DNA of 64,000 nucleotides from Plicaturopsis crispa FD-325 SS-3. Its lineage: Eukaryota; Basidiomycota; Agaricomycetes; Amylocorticiales; Amylocorticiaceae. The notes beneath the pieces are model-generated. The model saw only the letters and a list, made by a program, of their open reading frames with translations, was not told the origin of the DNA and did no database searches. A program made the position numbers and the translations under genes. Within the stretch, counting starts at the first letter, position 1. Every line of letters starts with the position of its first letter. Shown here one piece after another: positions 12,440 to 44,600 of this stretch. Location: assembly GCA_000827205.1 (NCBI GenBank), contig KN832560.1:337478-401477 (forward strand), in the 5' to 3' direction.

Positions 12440-15400
12440 TCAACGACAATGGTAATCAGAATGCAAGGAAATCCAAGGTGTGGGCTCGGTGCCACCTATA
12501 ACCACGACGCCCGCCTTTTCAGCTCGCTCGGCGTAGTGTTTCCATTGCGTGACGCCGGCCGCCTTGTATGCCAACTTGTCGCGCTGCAACAGCTGCCTCA
12601 CGACGATCGAGCAAGCGGGGCGCGTTACATTCTTCGCGCGGAAGGCCTGGAGGACTTCCACCAATGACTTGAATGCCGGCGGGACGGGCTTGCCCGCGGA
12701 AGGTAGAGGGTTCGGCGACGAAAGAGTATCGGGGGAGGAGGTGGACGAATTGTGCGCCCCGTTGATCTTGTTGCCGATGACCACCTTGATGCCAGCCTTT
12801 GCGGCCAGCTCGGCATACTCCTTCCAGCGCGACTCGTACGCCACCTTGTGCCGCTCTGGCAATTCCGCGGAGACGACATCGCGTCCCTGCGGCGAGCGCA
12901 GCAGCTCAAGGAGAACCTCCGAGAAAGGCCTCGGAGTCGAGGCGAAGGCGGGTTCGGTGTTGACGGAACCGATGGTGCGGCTGGAGCGCGCCGACGGGCG
13001 ATTGAGGGATGACGACGAGCGCAACGACGCGCCTGCGCCAGACCTCCTGGATAGAGCGCTCGACGCCCGTGTCGACTTGCCAGAGGAAGGGGGCAGCGAG
13101 ATCCACGCGTCTTCGCCGTCGCCGCCCATGATGACGACGCCGGCCTTCTCCGCGAGCTTGGCGTACTCATCCCACTTGGTGACACCGGCGGACTCGTAAG
13201 TGGTCCGGTGCCTTCTGGCAATGTGCCTTGCGATGTGCGAGCATCTGGGGCGTGTGACACCACGCTTCTGCGAGGATTGAAGCAATTTAACCAAGATCTC
13301 AAAAACGGGTGGTATGGGTTGGCGAGTAGGGGTGTCTAGACCAAGGTCGCGGCCACAGACTGTTGAAGACGGAGGATCAGGAGTTGGCCCATGAATATCT
13401 GGGGTAGTTGTAGATGACGGAGCGGGCGTCTGGGATACATCCAAGGGCATCGGAGGTGGAGGTAAAGGTGATACAGGCCCCAAGGTTGTTGATGACGACA
13501 TCTCAATAGGTGTAGGTGTCGCGGATGAAGGCTGAACGGCGGAATCTGCGGTCGCGTCCTCTGCAGGGCTCGCGCCACATCCGTGCCACTCAGGCTTCAG
13601 CGACACCCATGACTTGGGGTCCTCTCCGCCCACTTCAACTACACCTGCGTTTTCTGCCATAGCGATGTACTCCGCGATCGTCTGTGCGCCGGCGCGCCTA
13701 TACACATTGTTGTCCTGCATCAGTATATGCATGGCGACGACGGATTGGAAGGGGCGAGGGGTATTCTTCAAACGGAGGCGGTCTAGACTGTCGGCGAGGA
13801 GCCGGAACATTGGAGGAATAGTGTCTGCTGAAGAGCTGGAGGGGGATGCATCGATGGGTATGATGGAAGAGATGGGTTCGGATGTGCTGGTGGTGGTCGT
13901 GGTCTCCATTGTCTCGTGTATGGCGGGGATAGGGTCATTGCTGATGGGTACATGGCTAGTCAGGGTGGGGGAAGTAGAGGTCATCGGCACTGGCGCCTCT
14001 GGATGGTTGTCCAATGCTAGCTCTGGCTCGTGCGAGACCTGCGGAATTTGCGGCGGCACCAGCGGGGGGAGCTGATCCATCCACGGGTGGTGCTGCCGGT
14101 GCTCGAGGCCCAGTAGGGGTGAAGATGAGCGGGAGAGAGGTGGTTCGGTTCTGGTCACACGGGGTGAGCAGAAGAAATCGAACGCATGATACGAAGGCAG
14201 GCGGGCAGGAGGTGTTGCGGGGCGAGAGTAGGCAGGTTTAATCACGGGAGGAACGATAGGGGAATAGGGAGTAGCAGCAGGGTTTAGTTGCCTTCCGACT
14301 TGAGTCGGTAAAGATGCGGGGGCTAGCTGACTTTCCACCGCGATTTCGGTGGCGCATTCTGGGGTGACAGGTAATATTTCGGGGAGGTCGGTCGCTACGA
14401 CACGGTCGCAACTATCTTCGGTAGGTTGCTCTGGCTGTGACTCGGGCTCTGGGAGTGGGGCTATTGTTGCTGGTGGTACTATTACCGCCGGCGGGACGGT
14501 AGTTGTAGCCTGCGATTCGACCGTGGTCTGCGATTCAGTCGTTGCCTGTGGTTGTGGTTCGGGTGGAGATATCTCGTCTCGGAGGCTCGATAGGTTGATC
14601 TTCGACTGGCTCGGGAGGCGGGCGGACTTGCTGGATCGTCCGGGCGCAGGACTGGCTCGGCCTGACGAGCTCCGGTAATCAGAGCTACTTCTCGAGGCAG
14701 AAGTGGGCAGCTTCATTCTGTCGCGGTCACGGCCGGAAGATATGTCACCGTTGTCAAAGGATCCAGACGTCCGGAGATCGGAAAACCACGAGCGGACTCG
14801 CGGGTCGTCCCCAGAGCGTTTGCCGAGCCCTTTGGTACTCAAGCGTGACGCGGATATCAGTGAAACCAGGGACTCGGAGGGGTATGTGAGGTAGGGTGTA
14901 GTAGAGGACGAGTCGGGGATTGGCGGTGAGTTGCGGTCATAGCCACTGGGTAGATCATCGAGAGGTGCGTCGTCGAGAGGCTTGCTGAGACCCGAGACGG
15001 GATCTGGTTCGGCCTTGCCAAGTATATCGCGATACCAATCGTAGCAAACGGTGGCTTGGGCTGTCAGGCTGACGTGAATGGGAGGTGGAGGCGTTATAAG
15101 TACGACGCGGTAGCGCCGTAGTCGAAGCGTTGCAATGGCATAGGCGAAGTCGCGGTCGCCGGATATGATCATAATGGTGGATGGTGCGGGATTATCGATG
15201 GCGTAAGCAAGCATGTCAACTGTACATCGGACCGTTGAGGCTCTCTAATCAATCGTGACATGTGTATGTACGTACCTATCATCATTTTGTCGGCGACTGG
15301 GTTCGGGAAACAGTGAGTTATGTGCTGCACACAAAGCATCGTGTAGACGGCGTACCGTCCTTTCTGCCGTTATGAGGCGTATCTGTCAATGAGACCCCGG

Positions 15401-15666
15401 AGCACTGGAGCTCTGACCTCAGCGCCGACGATCGTGGGGAATCGTTTTCAGCAAGCTCTAGATATGCTTTGAACATGTTGACACTGCCATACTCGTGCGC
15501 CGTACGACGGATGTTGTCCACGAGCGTGTGTCCTGACAAGTTCGATACCGCACGACAATTCTCTTGGAAACCTCAATGCATTAGTGCAGAAAGATACCCG
15601 GCGTGCTGAAGAAGACACACCGAAATCCCAAAATATTGCCACGCGTTCTTGTTGTGGGGCCGACAT
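12440..15666 (-). CDS. NYN-domain protein with four LOTUS-like repeats
   Basis: Four exons (15666-15621, 15562-15356, 15296-15276, 15219-12440) close in phase and give 1017 residues. Residues about 8-170 form an NYN (PIN-like nuclease) domain: AIFWDFENC with Asp14, then VADKMMIVD with Asp87 and Asp93, then IISGDRDFAYA with Asp113 and Asp115, the acidic set expected of this fold. A Ser/Pro-rich middle of nearly 400 residues follows. Four repeats of about 55-80 residues end the protein, near 560-640, 728-802, 854-909 and 935-1015. Each has the pattern PPxFxxLVxxLQ...VxRP...YxxAG...W..YAxxAEKAGVV..GG...WISL, which resembles LOTUS/OST-HTH RNA-binding winged helices. The third repeat is shortened and has lost its tail. 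The combination recalls MARF1/limkain-b1, a meiotic RNA-silencing nuclease in mammals. Activity, targets and cell location here are inference. Confidence 0.85.
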
Positions 15667-16327
15667 GGAGAATGGACTGAGAGCTTTGCGTGGGGAACGC
15701 CAGAGGATGTACACAAGTATCTGGAGCAATAAGTCAGCGAAATTGCGAGGATCCCTTAGGCACGCATCGGCGCAAACTACTCTTGGAGTGACTGACCTGA
15801 TTGTTAAGGTCTCGATAATGATTTCTAGAGATATTAGGCGTATTGGTGACTAGTGGTATCGAAGATTATCGGAGTCGTGTGTGCAGCGTGCCAGGGCCCA
15901 GCACAGATGGTGTGTGCAAGCGTTGCGTCGAGCAAAACCTGGATTGGCAGCAGCCGGCATAGGTCAGAGTGACATCCTACACGAGCCTCATTGCAAACCT
16001 ACAACATACACACCTAGAGTTCTCCCGGAGACCAAAAAACGAGGAGAGCTTCAGTGCATGTCGCCGCCGCCGCCTACAATGCACATCGCACGGAACCAAA
16101 CCAGAATTTACGCAAGTTCACAACAGGAAATCAAAGCACGTGGTGACGCGCGCGTTCTGTCGACTGTCGCTTGTCTCCGAGTCAGTTTCTGTCAACGTCC
16201 AGTTGGTGAATTTTCCTGGAGATTTCTATGTTTCGACGTTGTCTCGACGATGCAGTTTATTAAAAGTACATATAGCTATAGCTGATGCTGACCAGCAGAC
16301 TCAGTGATCATGAATCGAAATCGTGTA
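15667..16327. other. Intergenic region between NYN paralogues
   Basis: This presumably holds the promoter of the first NYN gene and the 3' region of the second. Short plus-strand frames (15881-16307) overlap in two phases and resemble nothing known. No repeat is evident by eye. Confidence 0.5.
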
Positions 16328-19262
16328 CTACATGCTGGCAGCGTAATACCAGTCGGGATGCAAGGCAATCCAATTCCCACCGCCCCGCCCACCCAGCTCC
16401 ACGATTCCTACCGCAGCCGCCAGGTCAGCATATTGCTTCCACTTGCTTACCCCAGCATCTTTATACGCGTTTTTATTCTGTTTGAGCACCTCTGCCGCTA
16501 CTTGCGAGCGTTCTGGGCGAAAAACATTCTTGGAGCGGCACAACTGTAGATGCCTCACGAGAGGAACGAATGCTGGCGGAACGACTCGGACAGGTGGTGT
16601 AGCACTCCGTGATTTCGCTGGGACAGGGGCGGTACCTGAAGTAGAGGCATGCGATGGAGGTGCTTTCGCAGAGCTCGACTTGATAGATGCCGGTGTTGAG
16701 CTCGAGGGTAAAGGGCTGGATGCGGGCTTTGCCTGCATACTCTTCGGGGCGGGTGGAGGGTTTCTGTGGAGGGCATACGCATCATCAGCACTAAGGATGT
16801 ACACGGAGGGGAGGAGAGAGATACGAACACAATGGGCACCGTCGCTGCGGGTGCCTTCGCCAAATGCGCACAGTTCCTCCATCTAGGATGTAAAGTGATG
16901 GAAGGTGTACCATTATTCGTTCCCAGTACGACGAGTCCTAGTTTATCGGCCGATGCCGCATACTCCACAAAAGTCTTGACATCGGCATACACGTTTAACG
17001 ATGGATCACGACGTTGCAGTTCTTCTGCGACCAAGAGCTGAAAAGGCTCGGCCACGCCATTCGACCGCATCCTGATAAGGATCTCCATGAGGAGTCTGTA
17101 TTCGAGGGGCACTTCCCTGTTGACGCAGGGATCGCCTGTACAAATCGCAGTCTTTTGAGCGGCGGGCCGTGGAACGACTTGTATCGTCCGTGATGCTGCG
17201 GCCGACGCAATCTGCTCGGCAGGGACTGCAAGATCCGAAATTTCCTCCGCTGCGAAGGGTAAGGCGGCATGAGTAGATATTGTGGCTGCGGCTGGTGTAG
17301 CCACGAAAGCTCCGCTGGCAGCGGTAGCATAAGTTTTCGGAGAGTTCGCGCCCTCCACAGCGGATGCTACATTGCCCAACGGAACGGCGTCGCCCAGAGT
17401 TGAGTTGAGGCGAGATTCACTCGTAGCTTGCAGGGTGGGCGGAGGTGAGGGCGGAGGTTTTCCCGACGAGGATGAGTCCTTGAACGCAGTGGAATCGCGC
17501 GTGGTGTCGCAATGCCTCCAGCTGGGCATTAATGCAATCCATGATTCACCGAAGCCTCCGCGGTGCACGACACCAGCGAGGGTGGCCTGGGCGACATAGT
17601 CTTCGAATGACTCGACGCCTGCCGATCCGTAGCTGACTTCCCCAGACCCTTCGACCTTGTGGCGCACAGCCGAGGAGGACGGCTCGGGAACGCCTTCAGA
17701 CAGCAGCACCGTCAACGCATTGATCAATGCTCTGAACCGTTTGGCGACCTCCGGGTCCTGCGCCGGCGTATCGACCGAGAGAAACGACGAAGAGTCCGGC
17801 AAGAAAGTGCCTGTTTTGGTGGAGTGGAGGTGGAACGGGATCGATTGCGGCTCTTCGTCTAAGGAAAAGACTGTGCTGGATGATGAATCGGAGATATCAA
17901 TCGTTGTAAAGTTCGTCGACGGCTCTACGGAAATGGAAGATTCATTGGAGAACGAGTATTGCGAAGTGCGGGGGGATGTTGGCCGCCACAGAACTGGAAA
18001 AGGCGATGGCACTGCCGCACGGAACGGCGACAGCGAGATGAAAGGATGGGCGGCAGCAGGTTCGCTGCGGGCTTTGCGAAAGTCAGAGAAGGCCGGCATC
18101 GAAGGGAAAGGAACATTTTCGGCGTCGACGGCAGCCTCGTCGCCGTCCTTGGAAGCGCTCACACCGGACGGAACATCGGCCAGTGGTACTTGACGTTTTC
18201 GTGGGACAACTTCCGCGTCCTCGAGGGCGCTCGAGTCTGCCGGATGTACAGGGGTTTTAATTGCGGTATCCTGAACGTCCGACGACGGCACTCCGCTGGT
18301 CGACGTATCGGTCGTTTGCGAATCCTGTGCCACACTGCTGCTGTCCTGGACATCTGTACAAGCCCGCGCAGACGGCAGTTCCGGCTGTGCGACGTCCTCC
18401 TTTTCAGAATGGCCGTCCTCCGAAGCGCCACTGTAGACGCTTGGTGCATAGCCCACAGGTCCGACGTCCCCAGTAGTCTGGCACGCCGCGTCTATGCGAG
18501 TACGAGGCTCGTCAATGACAGCCGCGCCATTCAGAGCGGACAATGGACGTGATGCGACTGCGGGAGGAGAGAGTTCTTGTGGAGCAGAAATGAGGGGTGT
18601 TCCGACAGGAGGGGAGATAACCTTGCTAAGCGTTGTTCTGGGGGCCATATTGGACGCTTGGGATTGATTACCTCTTTCAAGCACATCGCATACCCAGTTA
18701 AAGCAGCACGACGCCTGCATGGGCAGGCTCTCATGGACGGGGGTTGGGGGAAGAATGAGAACGACGTTATAGCGCAACATACGCAGGACGGAGATCGCGT
18801 ACGCAAAATCCCTGTCCCCCGTTATGAGCACGATGGTAGCGGGTGGCGGGTTTTGGATGGCATATGCAAATAGGTCAACTGTCATGAAGAGAGTCAGCAA
18901 TTGTGCAGAGTCACAGGGAAAAGGGCTAGCGATGAAGACCTATCATCATATTATCCGCCACTTGAGAGAGATTAGTTCGTTGTGAAGACTTTTAGCTGAG
19001 CGTTGCGCCACACACCTTCCTTCCGGTCATTGTGGGGACAATCCGTCAAGGAGACCCCAGAGCATTGCAATTGCGAGCGAAACGTCGCCGCCTTCGGCGA
19101 ATTCGCGACAATCTCGAGATATGCCTTGAAAACATTGACTCTGCCGTAGTCAAATGCGAGGTCGCGAATATTGTTTGCGAGCGCGTATCCGGTCAACCTC
19201 GAGCACTGGTGGCTGACATTTTCAAAGTCCCAGAAAATGCCGACGTTCTCTGGAGCCGCCAT
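16328..19262 (-). CDS. NYN-domain protein with three LOTUS-like repeats
   Basis: This is the tandem paralogue of the gene at 12440-15666. Four exons (19262-19016, 18960-18940, 18878-16825, 16732-16328) close in phase to give 908 residues. The NYN domain begins at residue 7: GIFWDFENV with Asp12, VADNMMIVD with Asp85 and Asp91, and LITGDRDFAYA with Asp111 and Asp113, so the acidic centre is kept. Three C-terminal LOTUS-like repeats lie near 466-546, 679-758 and 826-905, each ending in a WIAL/ITL-type strand and a Trp-rich tail such as HPRWRNC. The 21-base exon and its two flanking introns sit at the same positions and phases as in the neighbour. The neighbour's intron inside the FWDFEN motif is missing, and this copy has an extra intron before its last repeat. 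The last intron (16733-16824) was chosen because it keeps phase; a nearer acceptor at 16764 does not. Confidence 0.83.
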
Positions 19263-37809: not shown

Positions 37810-39511
37810 TCAATGACCTTCCAAGTCCTGCTCAGCTTCTGCCTCTGGCTCTTCAACAATCCGTTCACTGGCAGCAGCAGCGGCCGCCTTTGCGTCCTTC
37901 TTACGCTTGGCAGATTCCTTCAACTTGTCCCATCGTTCACGGAATTTCGTAATCATCACTTTCTGCAATTCGAAAACGAGCACAGAGTGAGCGATTGGCT
38001 CTGCAGCGGGAACGGGGGTAAGATAGACACGAACCTGTTTCTCGTTGTCAACGCGCACGTTCCGCAATTCGTCTTCAAGCTCGCGTATACGCCGAAGAAG
38101 TTGTGTCTCGCGGTCTCGCGTTCCCAGGTTGAGAGGTGATGGGACGGGAGGAGCACCAATATTGATGGATCCAAAATCAATGGGCACAGGAGGGCGTTGT
38201 CCAACAGCTGACGCTCCCATCGCTCGGTGGGCCTGAGCATCGTGGTCGCTTCAGTGAGATGCACGGGCTAAACGAGATGGAAACATACCTCGCGCCGAGC
38301 CATGACAATGCTGTCTTTTAATTGCTGGTCCTGCTCCTTGCGCAGCTGCATAATCCGCTCAGTCGCGGTTAGCCGCTGTCGCATGGCATTCATTTCAGCT
38401 TTCAGTGCCGCATTCTCTTTCTTCAATGTCGACGGCGATGGATCCGAGCCAGACGGAATCATGCAAAATGATTCCGACGAATCGTCACCTACGGAGCACC
38501 GTTTCTCAGTATCAGCATGAAGCAAACGGTCAAAAAATCCGAAACACACCGTCATCAGCAAACGCCTCGTCGAAATCGTCGTAAACCTCGACCGACGGCT
38601 GAGATCGTGGCTTTGCACCACGGCCGAATGAGTTGTCGCCTGCAAGGACGCGCGATCCTGCGCTCTTGATCTTTCGCGAGAAGCGCGTTGCGAGCGTGTC
38701 GTCTGCATCTGTGTCACTGCTCGAACTGCCCTCTGGTCGCTTCTGCTGTGGCGGCTCTGCGCCGAGCGGTGCGGTAGCAAACGCCACCGGCTGCGAGAGG
38801 TTGTCGAGCATGCCTTCCATTATCTTCCAGAACTGATTGAAGGCGTCGCCAGGATCTGACTATGGAGAATGGCAATAGTGGTTAGGAAACAGGTCCGAGA
38901 GATAAAATAGGACTACAACATACACGCTGGCCCAGGACCATGAAAGACTCGTCAACCGTATGCTGCGAATCTGACATGCGGCCTCCACGGCCATATGGCG
39001 GGGGAGAGGGTGCATTGCGTGGAGTGCCGGAGCCTGGGCTAGACGGGGGAGCCGTAGAGGACGACCGCGGCGCTGCCGATTTCTGTGGCAAGGATGGATC
39101 CTTATTTTCCTCTCTTAACTTCGCGATTCGCCTCTGCAGTTCCTTGCCCGCTTTACAGTGATCATTGTATAGCATACGCAGCGTGCGTTTCGTCTGTTTA
39201 TGGGGTGAACGCCACAGTGCACCAGCGGTTAGTATGATATTGACTAGCGCGGGTATGTACGGGGATGCTTCAAACGAACGCACGTTTTCGTCCCCAGACT
39301 GCTCTACGCATGCTAAGAAAGCCTCTGCAGCCTTATAATGCTCTTCGGATGCAGGGATTAGAAGTCCCTGTCCCAGGTAATCCTCTGCATTTGAAGCATG
39401 GTTGTGCGCCTGTGTTTCAAAGTGCGGGGTAATTTCGAAATCAGTGACGCGTCTCTGAAAGGCATGAGCAGTGAGATTTACGGTATTCAGTGATGAATCG
39501 TTGGAAGGCAT
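37810..39511 (-). CDS. MIT-domain, coiled-coil protein (Atg38/NRBF2-like)
   Basis: The N-terminal 130 residues begin MPSNDSSLNTVNLTAHAFQR. They contain a helical hairpin AHNHASNAEDYLGQGLLIPA, EEHYKAAEAFLACVEQS and a third helix TKRTLRMLYNDHCKAGKELQ, the pattern of a microtubule-interacting-and-trafficking domain. A Pro/Ser-rich linker follows, then two coiled coils (STLKKENAALKAEMNAMRQR, and DRETQLLRRIRELEDELRN), and a basic/acidic tail ending EAEQDLEGH. This layout matches Atg38/NRBF2, which links subunits of the autophagy PI3-kinase complex I. The MIT-plus-coil reading is well supported by pattern; the Atg38 name is an inference from layout, since the family is poorly conserved. At least five exons; boundaries approximate. 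Confidence 0.55.
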
Positions 39512-40039
39512 TGATGCCTATACCACAGTGGGTGCTATATATATTGCTTTTGTGTTGTATGGATTGTCAAAGTCAAGAGAGAGCTCGGAGAGAACTGCAA
39601 AAAATGTGGAAGGAGAGGCTTGCGTCGAGAAAGACCCCTGATTTGGGTGCCCGCAGCAGTCGGCTGTAGGCCGGCGGCAATTTCGCGGCCTTTCCTAGGA
39701 AGAGCCCCTGTCCTCTTCAAAGTTCAAGCAACTTTCTTTCGCAACCTCCAGGACCTCACCCAATTCTCGACATTTATCCTCGCGACCGTGAGCTAAGACA
39801 AGAAAAAACTCTGCAGAATTACGGAGGTACAATGTCAGCTCAGGCAACCAGGGCCAGACATAGATCTGGGCGCAGTCCTGACTGAAATAGGTCACTGGTC
39901 AGCCTCCCGATGACATGCAAATGTATTCAAAAGAGCTGGACTCGCTCAGGACTGCCGCTAAACATCCCCGCCGACGCTATCTCTTAGATATCCCACTCTC
40001 AAATTTCAACTCTTGTTCAGTTTGCTCTTGGTAGTCGCT
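39512..40039. other. Divergent intergenic region
   Basis: The start codons of two opposite-strand genes face away across 528 bases. Short minus-strand frames (39535-39895) have no family resemblance. No motif was recognised. Confidence 0.45.
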
Positions 40040-41629: not shown

Positions 41630-44600
41630 ATGTCGGCGACACCCAATGTATTGTGAGTAGCCCAGTTTCCTATCTCCAAGCTTTGAATAATGTCAAGGTT
41701 GCTCATGATGTGCCCTCAGAAGAAAGAAAATCAGAGTCACTGGTGAGTCCGATTAACTTTGAGCATGTACCGTGCTTCATGAGAGTACGAGCCTGACTGC
41801 GTTTGCGCCCGCAGTCGTTGCTGCGGACGGGTTGTCGAAGCGCGATGTCTTCCGTCTGCCTGACCCATTTGCTGTAATCACGGTCGACGGCGAACAAACG
41901 CACACGACTGGTGTTATAAAGAAGACCTTGAATCCATACTGGAGCGAGAGTTTCGATATGTGAGTGGCGGCCAGTTGTACTCAGCGTCTATCGGTGTTTA
42001 CACCCTACATCAGTACCGTCAAGGACTCTTCGGTCGTGGCAGTTCAAATCTTCGACCAGCGCAAGTTCAAGAGGAGGGACCAAGGTTTCTTGGGTGTAGT
42101 CAACGTGCGCGTCAGCGATGTGCTTGACCTGGAATTGGGCGGTCACGGTGTGTATGACCATTCTCTCCACCGTTCGCCTTGCTCATAACGTTTGCCTTTG
42201 CTTAGAAATGCTGACGTTGGACCTGAAGAAATCCAACGACAACCTGGTTGTTCACGGCAAACTCATCATATACCTTTCAACGAACGTCAGTCAACCCATC
42301 AGTAACCCCGGTCCATCTCAAGTCTCGGGCGCGGCAAACGCATTCGCAAACATGGGCATCAATGAGTCGTCTTTGGCTCTACCGCAAGGCAACAATGCGG
42401 GCCCTCACGCTGAAGGGGGGCTCTCTCGCACAGCCAGCTCCCACGCCACAGGACCTGATTCCTCAAGTGCAGCGCACATCTCTATGCCCACCCCTGATAT
42501 CGCACCGTCGCCCACCGTTACAACCCCAGACGGCGAGTCCCAGCCCTCGGTGGCGCCCCAGTCTCGTCCTGTTAGTTCTACCAGTCCAGGTGCGCCACCC
42601 GGTGGTCCTACCCCTCCCGCTGGTGCAGCTCAATCGGGTGTGCAAAGTGCTACGAATCCCGCAGCGCCCACTTCTCCTGGACAAGCGGCTACCAACAACA
42701 ACGCTCAAATGCGCAACTTCAACCCTAATGTGGACCAGTTTGGGCCATTGCCCCATGGTTGGGAACGCCGCATAGACCCCCTTGGTCGTACTTATTATGT
42801 CGACCATAACACACGTAGCACGACATGGAATCGACCATCGGCCAGTCAGGCGGTCAACAACAATGCCCAAGAGGGCGAGACCAATGCTGCGCGTGATCAA
42901 CACTCGCGGCGTATCCTCGCGGACGATCTCCTTGAGGCCAATAACAACACAAACAGCGTATACCGATCGCCCAGCGCCGCGCCTGCTGCTGCTGCTTCCC
43001 CCGCGCCAAGCGCGCCGGGTGCCGCTATCGCTGCTGGCGGTAATGCGACTACCGCGGGCTCAGGAAACTTGCCCGCCGGATGGGAAGAGCGGTACACGCC
43101 GGAAGGTCGTCCTTACTACGTCGACCACAATACCCGCACCACAACGTGGGTGGACCCACGCCGCCAGACGATCATCCGAGTCATGGGCCCGAACGGACAG
43201 AACACTGCGCTGCAGCCGCAGACAATTTCACAGTTGGGCCCGTTGCCGTCTGGATGGGAAATGCGGCTCACATCAACTGCGCGTGTGTACTTCGTGGATC
43301 ACAATACGAAGACGACGACTTGGGATGATCCGCGCCTACCCTCGACCCTTGACGCCAACGTGCCGCAATATAAGCGTGACTTCAGGAGGAAGCTCATATA
43401 TTTCCGGAGTCAGCCTGCCATGCGTGCACAGCCAGGAAACTGTCAAATCAAAGTCAGGAGAAATCATATCTTCGAGGACAGTTACGCAGAGATCATGAGG
43501 CAGACGCCCAACGACCTGAAGAAGAGATTAATGATCAAGTTCGACGGCGAAGATGGTTTAGATTATGGAGGTCTTTCGAGGTATGCAAATAGCATTCCAT
43601 TGCATGATGTTTCTGACATGATTTCCTTTCAAACAGAGAATTCTTCTTCCTACTCTCGCACGAGATGTTCAACCCCTTCTACTGTTTGTTCGAATACTCT
43701 GCACACGACAACTACACCCTGCAGATCAATCCCGCGTCCGGCGTCAATCCCGAGCACTTGAACTACTTCAAGTTTATCGGCCGATGCCTGGGTCTCGGTA
43801 TCTTCCACCGCCGCTTCCTCGACGCATACTTTATCGTCAGCTTTTACAAAATGATATTGAAGAAGAAGGTGACACTTGCAGATCTCGAGAGTGTTGACGC
43901 GGAACTGCACAGGGGTATGACATGGATGTTGTACGTATCCACGACGTTTGTTTTGACGTTGCGCTCCGTCGCTGACACTGTCTTACAGGGAAAACGACAT
44001 CACCGATATTATTGACGAAACATTTACGACCACGGAAGAGCGCTTTGGCGAGATGGTAACTATCGAGCTGATCACGGGCGGCACCGACATGCCCGTGACT
44101 GAGGATAACAAGAAGGACTACGTTGAAGCTGTTGTGGAGTACCGTATCTCGAAGCGCGTGAAAGAGCAATTCGAGGCCTTCATGTCCGGCTTCAGCGAAC
44201 TCATCCCTCAGGACCTCATCACCGTCTTCGACGAGCGTGAACTCGAGCTTTTGATCGGTGGCATGTCTGAGATCGACGTGTACGTGCTCGTCCTTCACAT
44301 AATTTGTCAACGTTACTGACGGCTAATCTCAATGTAGCGATGACTGGACGAAGTTCACCGACTACCGTGGCTATGAGATGAACGACGAGGTTATCCAATG
44401 GTTCTGGAAATGCGTACGCAGCTGGCCGCCCGAGCGCAAATCGCGCCTCCTCCAGTTCGCTACCGGTACCTCCCGGATACCAGTCAATGGTTTCAAGGAT
44501 CTCCAGGGTTCCGATGGTCCTCGGCGGTTCACGATTGAGAAATCTGGCGACCCTTCACAACTGCCGAAGAGCCATACGTGCTTCAACCGTATCGACTTGC

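What the first reader, a model, noticed from the sequence alone, without database searches (positions are those of the whole stretch)
12440..19262. Tandem pair of NYN nuclease genes with C-terminal LOTUS-like repeats
Both genes join an N-terminal NYN domain with its acidic residues intact to a disordered middle and several C-terminal LOTUS/OST-HTH-like repeats. The layout recalls MARF1/limkain-b1, which silences specific mRNAs in mouse oocytes. A tandem fungal pair of this kind suggests a duplicated RNA-targeting nuclease system whose targets are unknown. Seen directly: NYN motifs, repeats, two shared intron positions with the same phases. Inferred: LOTUS identity, RNA binding, nuclease activity.
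Basis: partly seen in the sequence, partly recalled or inferred. Interest (0 to 1): 0.85.

Follow-up and report, generated by a model that had tools for sequence, protein, structure and literature searches.

The report
Paired fungal RNA-cutting enzyme genes
Two neighbouring fungal genes each encode a likely RNA-cutting enzyme, related to one that controls messenger RNA in animal eggs, tied to several copies of a small winged-helix domain that a standard domain library does not recognise; this looks like a divergent fungal version of a known kind of enzyme.

Summary
Two tandem minus-strand genes occupy 12440-15666 (A, 1017 aa) and 16328-19262 (B, about 908 aa). Each has an N-terminal NYN domain (Pfam E 1.7e-23 and 2.7e-22), a Ser/Pro-rich middle and C-terminal repeats: four (one degenerate) in A, three in B. 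The NYN domains share 97 of 162 residues; the best solved relative of both is MARF1. The four acidic positions MARF1 needs are kept, one as Glu.

The LOTUS label is only half supported. AlphaFold2 models one unit confidently (pLDDT 93) as a winged helix with an extra short helix before the recognition helix, as LOTUS has. But 0 of 7 units matches Pfam OST-HTH, profile comparison with bacterial OST-HTH fails, and Foldseek ranks Tejas LOTUS fifth among many winged helices, with no significant E-value. I file them as limkain-type NYN nucleases with unassigned, LOTUS-like winged-helix repeats.

Closest working models are MARF1 and plant DNE1. Both genes share a 21-nt microexon that carries a catalytic Asp and could be skipped in frame, a possible activity switch. 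No fungal genomes were searchable.

The parts
12440..15666 (-). Gene A: NYN + Ser/Pro-rich middle + four C-terminal units, 1017 aa, exons 15666-15621, 15562-15356, 15296-15276, 15219-12440
   Evidence: gene model, open frame and GT..AG introns
15050..15645 (-). NYN domain of gene A (residues 8-148), interrupted by introns
   Evidence: Pfam PF01936 E 1.7e-23; MARF1 5yaa E 1.5e-7
15276..15296 (-). 21-nt microexon of gene A coding most of VADKMMI, including the catalytic-position Asp87
13829..14986 (-). Ser/Pro/Thr-rich middle of gene A (residues 170-555), taken as disordered from composition only
   Evidence: S 16.6%, P 16.1%, T 8.8% of 386 aa
13571..13828 (-). Repeat unit A1 (residues 556-641), net charge -1
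13079..13327 (-). Repeat unit A2 (residues 723-805), the one modelled: winged helix
   Evidence: AlphaFold2 mean pLDDT 93.0, pTM 0.82
12743..12949 (-). Degenerate repeat unit A3 (residues 849-917), lacks stretches present in the other six
12443..12700 (-). Repeat unit A4 (residues 932-1017), net charge +7
16328..19262 (-). Gene B: NYN + Ser/Pro-rich middle + three C-terminal units, about 908 aa, exons 19262-19016, 18960-18940, 18878-16825, 16732-16328 (last intron uncertain; alternative 16804-16764)
   Evidence: gene model
18739..19244 (-). NYN domain of gene B (residues 7-136), interrupted by introns
   Evidence: Pfam PF01936 E 2.7e-22; MARF1 6fdl E 1.1e-6
18940..18960 (-). 21-nt microexon of gene B coding most of VADNMMI, including the catalytic-position Asp85
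17758..18654 (-). Ser/Pro/Ala-rich middle of gene B (residues 165-463)
   Evidence: S 17.1%, P 11.7%, A 10.7% of 299 aa; no similarity to the middle of A beyond composition (215 of 300 shuffles score as high)
17506..17757 (-). Repeat unit B1 (residues 464-547), net charge -4
16864..17121 (-). Repeat unit B2 (residues 676-761), net charge 0
16331..16591 (-). Repeat unit B3 (residues 822-908 in the model used), net charge +6

Best explanation
Both genes encode metal-dependent endoribonucleases of the limkain-b1/MARF1 type. The NYN domain cuts single-stranded RNA; the C-terminal winged-helix units, joined by flexible linkers, act as a multivalent reader of RNA and/or decay factors that brings chosen transcripts to the nuclease, as proposed for MARF1 and plant DNE1. 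The pair arose by an old tandem duplication and both NYN copies have been kept under purifying selection. Shown here: NYN homology and conserved acidic positions, repeat array, winged-helix fold of one modelled unit, duplication, shared introns. Inferred: nuclease activity, RNA binding, LOTUS homology of the units, mRNA as target, cytoplasmic site of action.
For: NYN matches and MARF1 as best solved relative of both NYN domains. Four acidic positions kept (A D14, E51, D87, D113; B D12, E50, D85, D111) when aligned with MARF1 and bacterial NYN; the spacing in the copied MARF1 chain fits mouse D178, D215, D246 and D272, reported as required for cleavage (PMC10226599, passages). Unit fold: helix, helix, short helix, helix, hairpin, pLDDT 93; the LOTUS-like domains of Egl are described as a wHTH with an added helix 3 and close to LOTUS (PMC13186709, passages). 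Tejas LOTUS chain B: TM 0.63/0.68, 2.6 A over 75 columns. NYN pN 0.23 against saturated pS 0.82 over 157 codons. MARF1 NYN is an endoribonuclease in vitro, and silencing needs its pocket (PMC6294520, passages); DNE1 has NYN plus two C-terminal LOTUS domains and is needed for cleavage of mRNAs (PMC10226599, passages).
Against: No sequence link of the units to OST-HTH: 0 of 7 in Pfam, consensus not matched, hhalign probability about 1%, no chain named LOTUS in PDB sequence searches with the unit profile or consensus at E up to 10. The only Pfam family near the repeats with E below 0.01 is RecJ_C, below its cut-off (E 9.3e-5, 23.2 against 30 bits, over the end of unit A2 and the linker after it). 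Foldseek has no hit at E 0.001 or less. No RRM in the long exons, unlike animal MARF1. B1 and A1 are acidic or near neutral (-4, -1), which does not favour RNA binding by those units. One essential Asp is Glu.
Confidence: 0.58

Rival explanations
1. The C-terminal units are a fungal winged-helix family unrelated to LOTUS, joined independently to a limkain-type NYN. They could bind protein, DNA or structured RNA, so the MARF1 likeness of the layout is convergent.
For: No OST-HTH match by any sequence route tried. Foldseek neighbours are mixed winged helices (ArsR, Fur, ORC, KAT6A, histone H1) with scores like those of LOTUS; the viral library gives mixed winged helices too, none at E 0.001 or less. 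Mixed unit charges. A sub-threshold RecJ_C match.
Against: The modelled unit has the extra short helix before the recognition helix, an addition to the canonical wHTH described for LOTUS-like domains (PMC13186709, passages). The NYN-plus-repeats layout occurs with recognised LOTUS in bacteria, plants and animals (PMC2848206, sections 4 and 5; PMC10226599, passages).
Confidence: 0.27
2. They are RNA-processing nucleases of an organelle, like the plant mitochondrial NYN-LOTUS proteins MNU1 and MNU2, rather than mRNA-silencing factors.
For: MNU1/2 combine NYN with two LOTUS domains, and mutants have elongated 5' ends of some mitochondrial mRNAs (PMC9181182, passages).
Against: In both gene models the NYN domain starts at residue 7-8, leaving no room for an N-terminal targeting peptide; an unseen upstream exon is not excluded.
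Confidence: 0.1
3. They belong to a conflict or defence locus, for example a killer gene with an NYN effector, or to a mobile element.
For: The two killer proteins of an Arabidopsis pollen killer carry NYN domains of limkain-b1 type (PMC11761171, passages).
Against: The neighbours that gave Pfam hits are mostly housekeeping: DNA polymerase delta subunit, PRP21-like, CMS1, NDC80, telomere regulator. No inverted repeats of 18 nt or more in 11-21 kb and no tandem arrays in 9-24 kb. Old paralogs under purifying selection.
Confidence: 0.05

Closest known systems
MARF1 (limkain b1), vertebrates
   Same: NYN domain of the same type with the acidic pocket kept; multiple small repeats C-terminal to it
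   Different: MARF1 has two RRMs and eight minimal LOTUS domains (PMC6294520); here no RRM in the long exons and repeats that do not match OST-HTH; a long Ser/Pro-rich middle follows the NYN
DNE1, Arabidopsis
   Same: N-terminal NYN followed by C-terminal repeats (PMC10226599)
   Different: two recognised LOTUS domains; here three and four units of unassigned family
Bacterial NYN-OST-HTH and LabA-like NYN proteins
   Same: NYN active-site motifs, with the pattern ADxxxxVD shared with the LabA-like loci
   Different: bacterial OST-HTH units match Pfam, these do not
Drosophila MARF1
   Same: tandem LOTUS-type repeats
   Different: lacks a nuclease domain; its LOTUS domains bind CCR4-NOT (PMC6168497, passages)

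Membership tests
NYN domain, limkain-b1/MARF1 type | significant match to the NYN profile | tested here: met
   PF01936 E 1.7e-23 and 2.7e-22, over cut-off
NYN domain, limkain-b1/MARF1 type | four acidic metal-binding positions | tested here: met
   D, E (for D), D, D in both genes; the Glu is conservative, activity not tested
NYN domain, limkain-b1/MARF1 type | closest solved relative is MARF1 | tested here: met
   A: 5yaa 1.5e-7, 6fdl 5.6e-7, 2qip 0.73. B: 6fdl 1.1e-6, 5yaa 1.3e-5, 2qip 0.0036
LOTUS/OST-HTH domain | match to PF12872 | tested here: not met
   0 of 7 units, none in the long exons, not the consensus; positive control L082 2.4e-19
LOTUS/OST-HTH domain | profile-profile similarity to known members | tested here: inconclusive
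   hhalign 1.1% against 13 sequences, and out of register against 36; weak test, since the 13-sequence profile found no animal LOTUS in the PDB; no eukaryotic LOTUS alignment was at hand
LOTUS/OST-HTH domain | winged helix with an added helix before the recognition helix | tested here: met
   model H7-21, H29-39, H43-46, H52-61, E66-68, E75-77; one of seven units modelled
LOTUS/OST-HTH domain | best structural neighbours are LOTUS | tested here: inconclusive
   ranks 5, 32 (Tejas) and 49 (Egl) of the 50 shown out of 755, no E at or below 0.001; no working positive control
eLOTUS subclass | C-terminal extension that binds Vasa | tested here: inconclusive
   no helix after the hairpin in the 83-residue model, but the flank beyond the unit was not modelled
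MARF1 orthology | RRMs in addition to NYN and LOTUS | tested here: not met
   no RRM match at E up to 10 in the long exons of A and B or the NYN regions
MARF1/DNE1-type function | endoribonuclease activity and decapping-factor binding | not testable with these tools
   needs bench work

The most novel reading that the evidence does not exclude
A fungal RNA-silencing nuclease pair uses a winged-helix reader family that Pfam does not yet describe, and is tuned by splicing: skipping the conserved 21-nt microexon would give a nearly full-length protein without a catalytic Asp, a binding-only form that could protect or hold the RNAs that the full form cuts.
Probability: 0.15. Interest if true: 0.75.

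Novelty: new variant of a known kind. Interest (0 to 1): 0.5.

Why it matters
MARF1 and DNE1 tie one nuclease to repeated small domains whose targets and partners are still debated. A duplicated fungal version whose repeats have drifted so far that Pfam misses them would give a genetically simple organism in which to ask what the repeats read, and whether the animal germline role grew out of an older role in general mRNA turnover. It also marks a winged-helix repeat that annotation at present overlooks.

Tried and rejected
Sequence routes to LOTUS: Pfam on single units, on hand-made consensus sequences and on the long exons, PDB profile search and consensus search, hhalign with 36 bacterial OST-HTH sequences in three modes with 100 column shuffles each (the five weakest bacterial loci, L088-L091 and L093, were left out). 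In global mode the score beat all 100 shuffles and the reversed profile, but the alignment joins the C-terminal two thirds of the unit to the N-terminal two thirds of OST-HTH, so I do not count it as support. In the two local modes 5 and 12 of 100 shuffles did as well, and the reversed profile scored higher.

Structural control: the AlphaFold2 job for a viral-contig OST-HTH domain (L123, single sequence) gave pLDDT 55 and was not used for a fold search, so there is no calibration of how a true OST-HTH would rank.

Relatives: viral contigs gave none for the gene B NYN. Plasmids gave 7 records with weak NYN matches to gene A. The unit profile found nothing in 100 bacterial genomes, which shows little. 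I found no collection of fungal genomes among the tools.

Literature: ten searches listed no paper whose title or shown abstract concerns basidiomycete NYN-LOTUS proteins. Several listings were cut (30 of 53, 10 of 28, 15 of 5,763) and most listed papers were not opened; papers outside the library were not searched. Two papers state that LOTUS domains occur in fungi (PMC5458760 and PMC6168497, passages). The text of PMC2848206 names no fungi among the eukaryotes with OST-HTH, though its Figure 1 legend lists Aspergillus nidulans (sections 4 and 5).

Mobile-element and killer readings were considered and rated low.
Full report
What is there. Two genes lie head to tail on the minus strand. Gene B (19262-16328) is upstream of gene A (15666-12440), with 661 bases between the coding parts. 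Splicing at GT..AG sites chosen by eye gives 1017 aa for A from four exons and about 908 aa for B from four exons. B's last intron is uncertain: 16824-16733 (92 nt, phase 0) and 16804-16764 (41 nt, phase 2) both keep the frame. It falls between units B2 and B3 and touches neither. The neighbours that gave Pfam hits look ordinary: DNA polymerase delta small subunit at 9-11 kb, a Surp/PRP21-like protein at 23.9-25.7 kb, CMS1 at 27 kb, NDC80 at 34-36 kb, a three-WW protein at 42 kb, a telomere regulator at 62 kb. I scanned 20 open frames there; the window has 65 of at least 150 aa. No Rfam family at gathering score and no tRNA was found.

The nuclease domain. Pfam NYN matches both (1.7e-23, 2.7e-22). 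The closest solved structures are MARF1 for both: A 5yaa 1.5e-7 and 6fdl 5.6e-7, B 6fdl 1.1e-6 and 5yaa 1.3e-5; bacterial 2qip follows (0.73 and 0.0036). The two fungal NYN domains share 97 of 162 aligned residues, with pN 0.23 and saturated pS 0.82 over 157 codons, so this is an old duplication with both copies constrained. Aligned with MARF1 and bacterial NYN proteins, A has D14, E51, D87 and D113, and B has D12, E50, D85 and D111 (alignment; numbers rechecked). Counting residues in the MARF1 fragment from D178 lands on D215, D246 and D272, the four Asp named as required in mouse MARF1 (PMC10226599, passages). The second is Glu in both fungal genes and Asp in the bacterial LabA-like loci. 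Glu is common at this position in PIN domains (recalled, not tested). Human MARF1's further Asp427 (PMC6294520, passages) is Lys in A and Asn in B, while both keep the second Asp of the bacterial pattern ADxxxxVD, six residues on.

The repeats. Seven units of about 70-87 residues align with invariant L12, L16, Y55, A59 and G63 (numbering of unit A2). Eighteen of 21 pairs beat all 300 shuffles; the three that do not involve degenerate A3. The middles of A and B show no similarity beyond composition (215 of 300 shuffles score as high). A2 was modelled with the seven-unit alignment: mean pLDDT 93.0, pTM 0.82, a winged helix with four helices and a C-terminal hairpin. The short helix 43-46 sits before the recognition helix. 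The LOTUS-like Egl domains are described as a wHTH with an added helix 3 and as closely resembling LOTUS (PMC13186709, passages), so the topology fits.

Is it LOTUS? The sequence gives no support. Pfam OST-HTH matches 0 of 7 units, nothing in the long exons and not the consensus, while a bacterial OST-HTH gives 2.4e-19. The nearest family to the repeats in the exon scan is RecJ_C, below its cut-off (E 9.3e-5, 23.2 against 30 bits), over the end of A2 and the linker after it. hhalign of the units against 13 OST-HTH sequences gives probability 1.1%; with 36 sequences the alignments are out of register. But the 13-sequence profile finds two OST-HTH-type structures of uncharacterised proteins in the PDB (2kpm, 2kzv) and no animal LOTUS at E up to 1, so this route may not see across kingdoms. 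Foldseek lists 755 matches, none at E 0.001 or less; among the 50 shown are Tejas LOTUS at ranks 5 and 32 (TM 0.57/0.62 and 0.63/0.68) and Egl at rank 49, among ArsR, Fur, ORC and KAT6A winged helices. The viral library gives mixed winged helices too. A control fold of a true OST-HTH failed (pLDDT 55). I therefore call the repeats LOTUS-like winged-helix units of unassigned family.

How it probably works. [quoted passage not shown] The positive units (A4 +7, B3 +6, A2 +5) are the best candidates for RNA contact; A1 (-1) and B1 (-4) may bind protein instead (charges, roles inferred). In flies the MARF1 LOTUS domains bind CCR4-NOT (PMC6168497, passages), which is the main alternative role for such units.

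The microexon. In both genes the third acidic position (D87 in A, D85 in B) lies in a 21-nt exon between two phase-1 introns. Skipping it leaves the frame open and removes seven residues, including that Asp (1010 and 901 aa). Gene B's downstream donor (GTCTTC) departs from the usual GTRNGT (consensus recalled). Whether skipping occurs is unknown; it is a testable switch.

Verdict. A new variant of a known kind. The paper searches listed no paper on basidiomycete NYN-LOTUS proteins (several listings were cut and most papers were not opened), although two papers say LOTUS domains occur in fungi.

Noticed in passing
15276-15296 and 18940-18960: In-frame 21-nt microexon with an Asp of the active site, flanked by phase-1 introns, kept in both paralogs; possible splice switch.
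   Followed up: partly
units A1, A2, A4, B1, B3 (for example 13079-13327): A Trp at the start of the last strand of the wing (W-I/V-S/A-L) is kept in 5 of 7 units, and a Tyr in the recognition helix in 7 of 7.
   Followed up: no
13007-13189, - strand (residues 769-829 of A): Sub-threshold RecJ_C match (E 9.3e-5, 23.2 against 30 bits) over the end of unit A2 and the linker after it.
   Followed up: no
12537-13199 and 17887-18552, + strand: Long open frames antisense to the two genes (220 and 221 aa); possibly a by-product of base composition.
   Followed up: no
38885-39517, - strand: Weak PaREP1 match (E 4.4e-4, below cut-off) in a 211-aa open frame.
   Followed up: no
42100-43758, + strand: Open frame of 553 aa with three WW domains (E 4.7e-39).
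   Followed up: no
L057, L022, L025, L075 (bacterial LabA-like loci): OST-HTH matches just below the cut-off (E 2.9e-4 to 9.9e-4) fall inside the LabA-like NYN genes of these four loci; maybe a divergent OST-HTH in that bacterial family.
   Followed up: no
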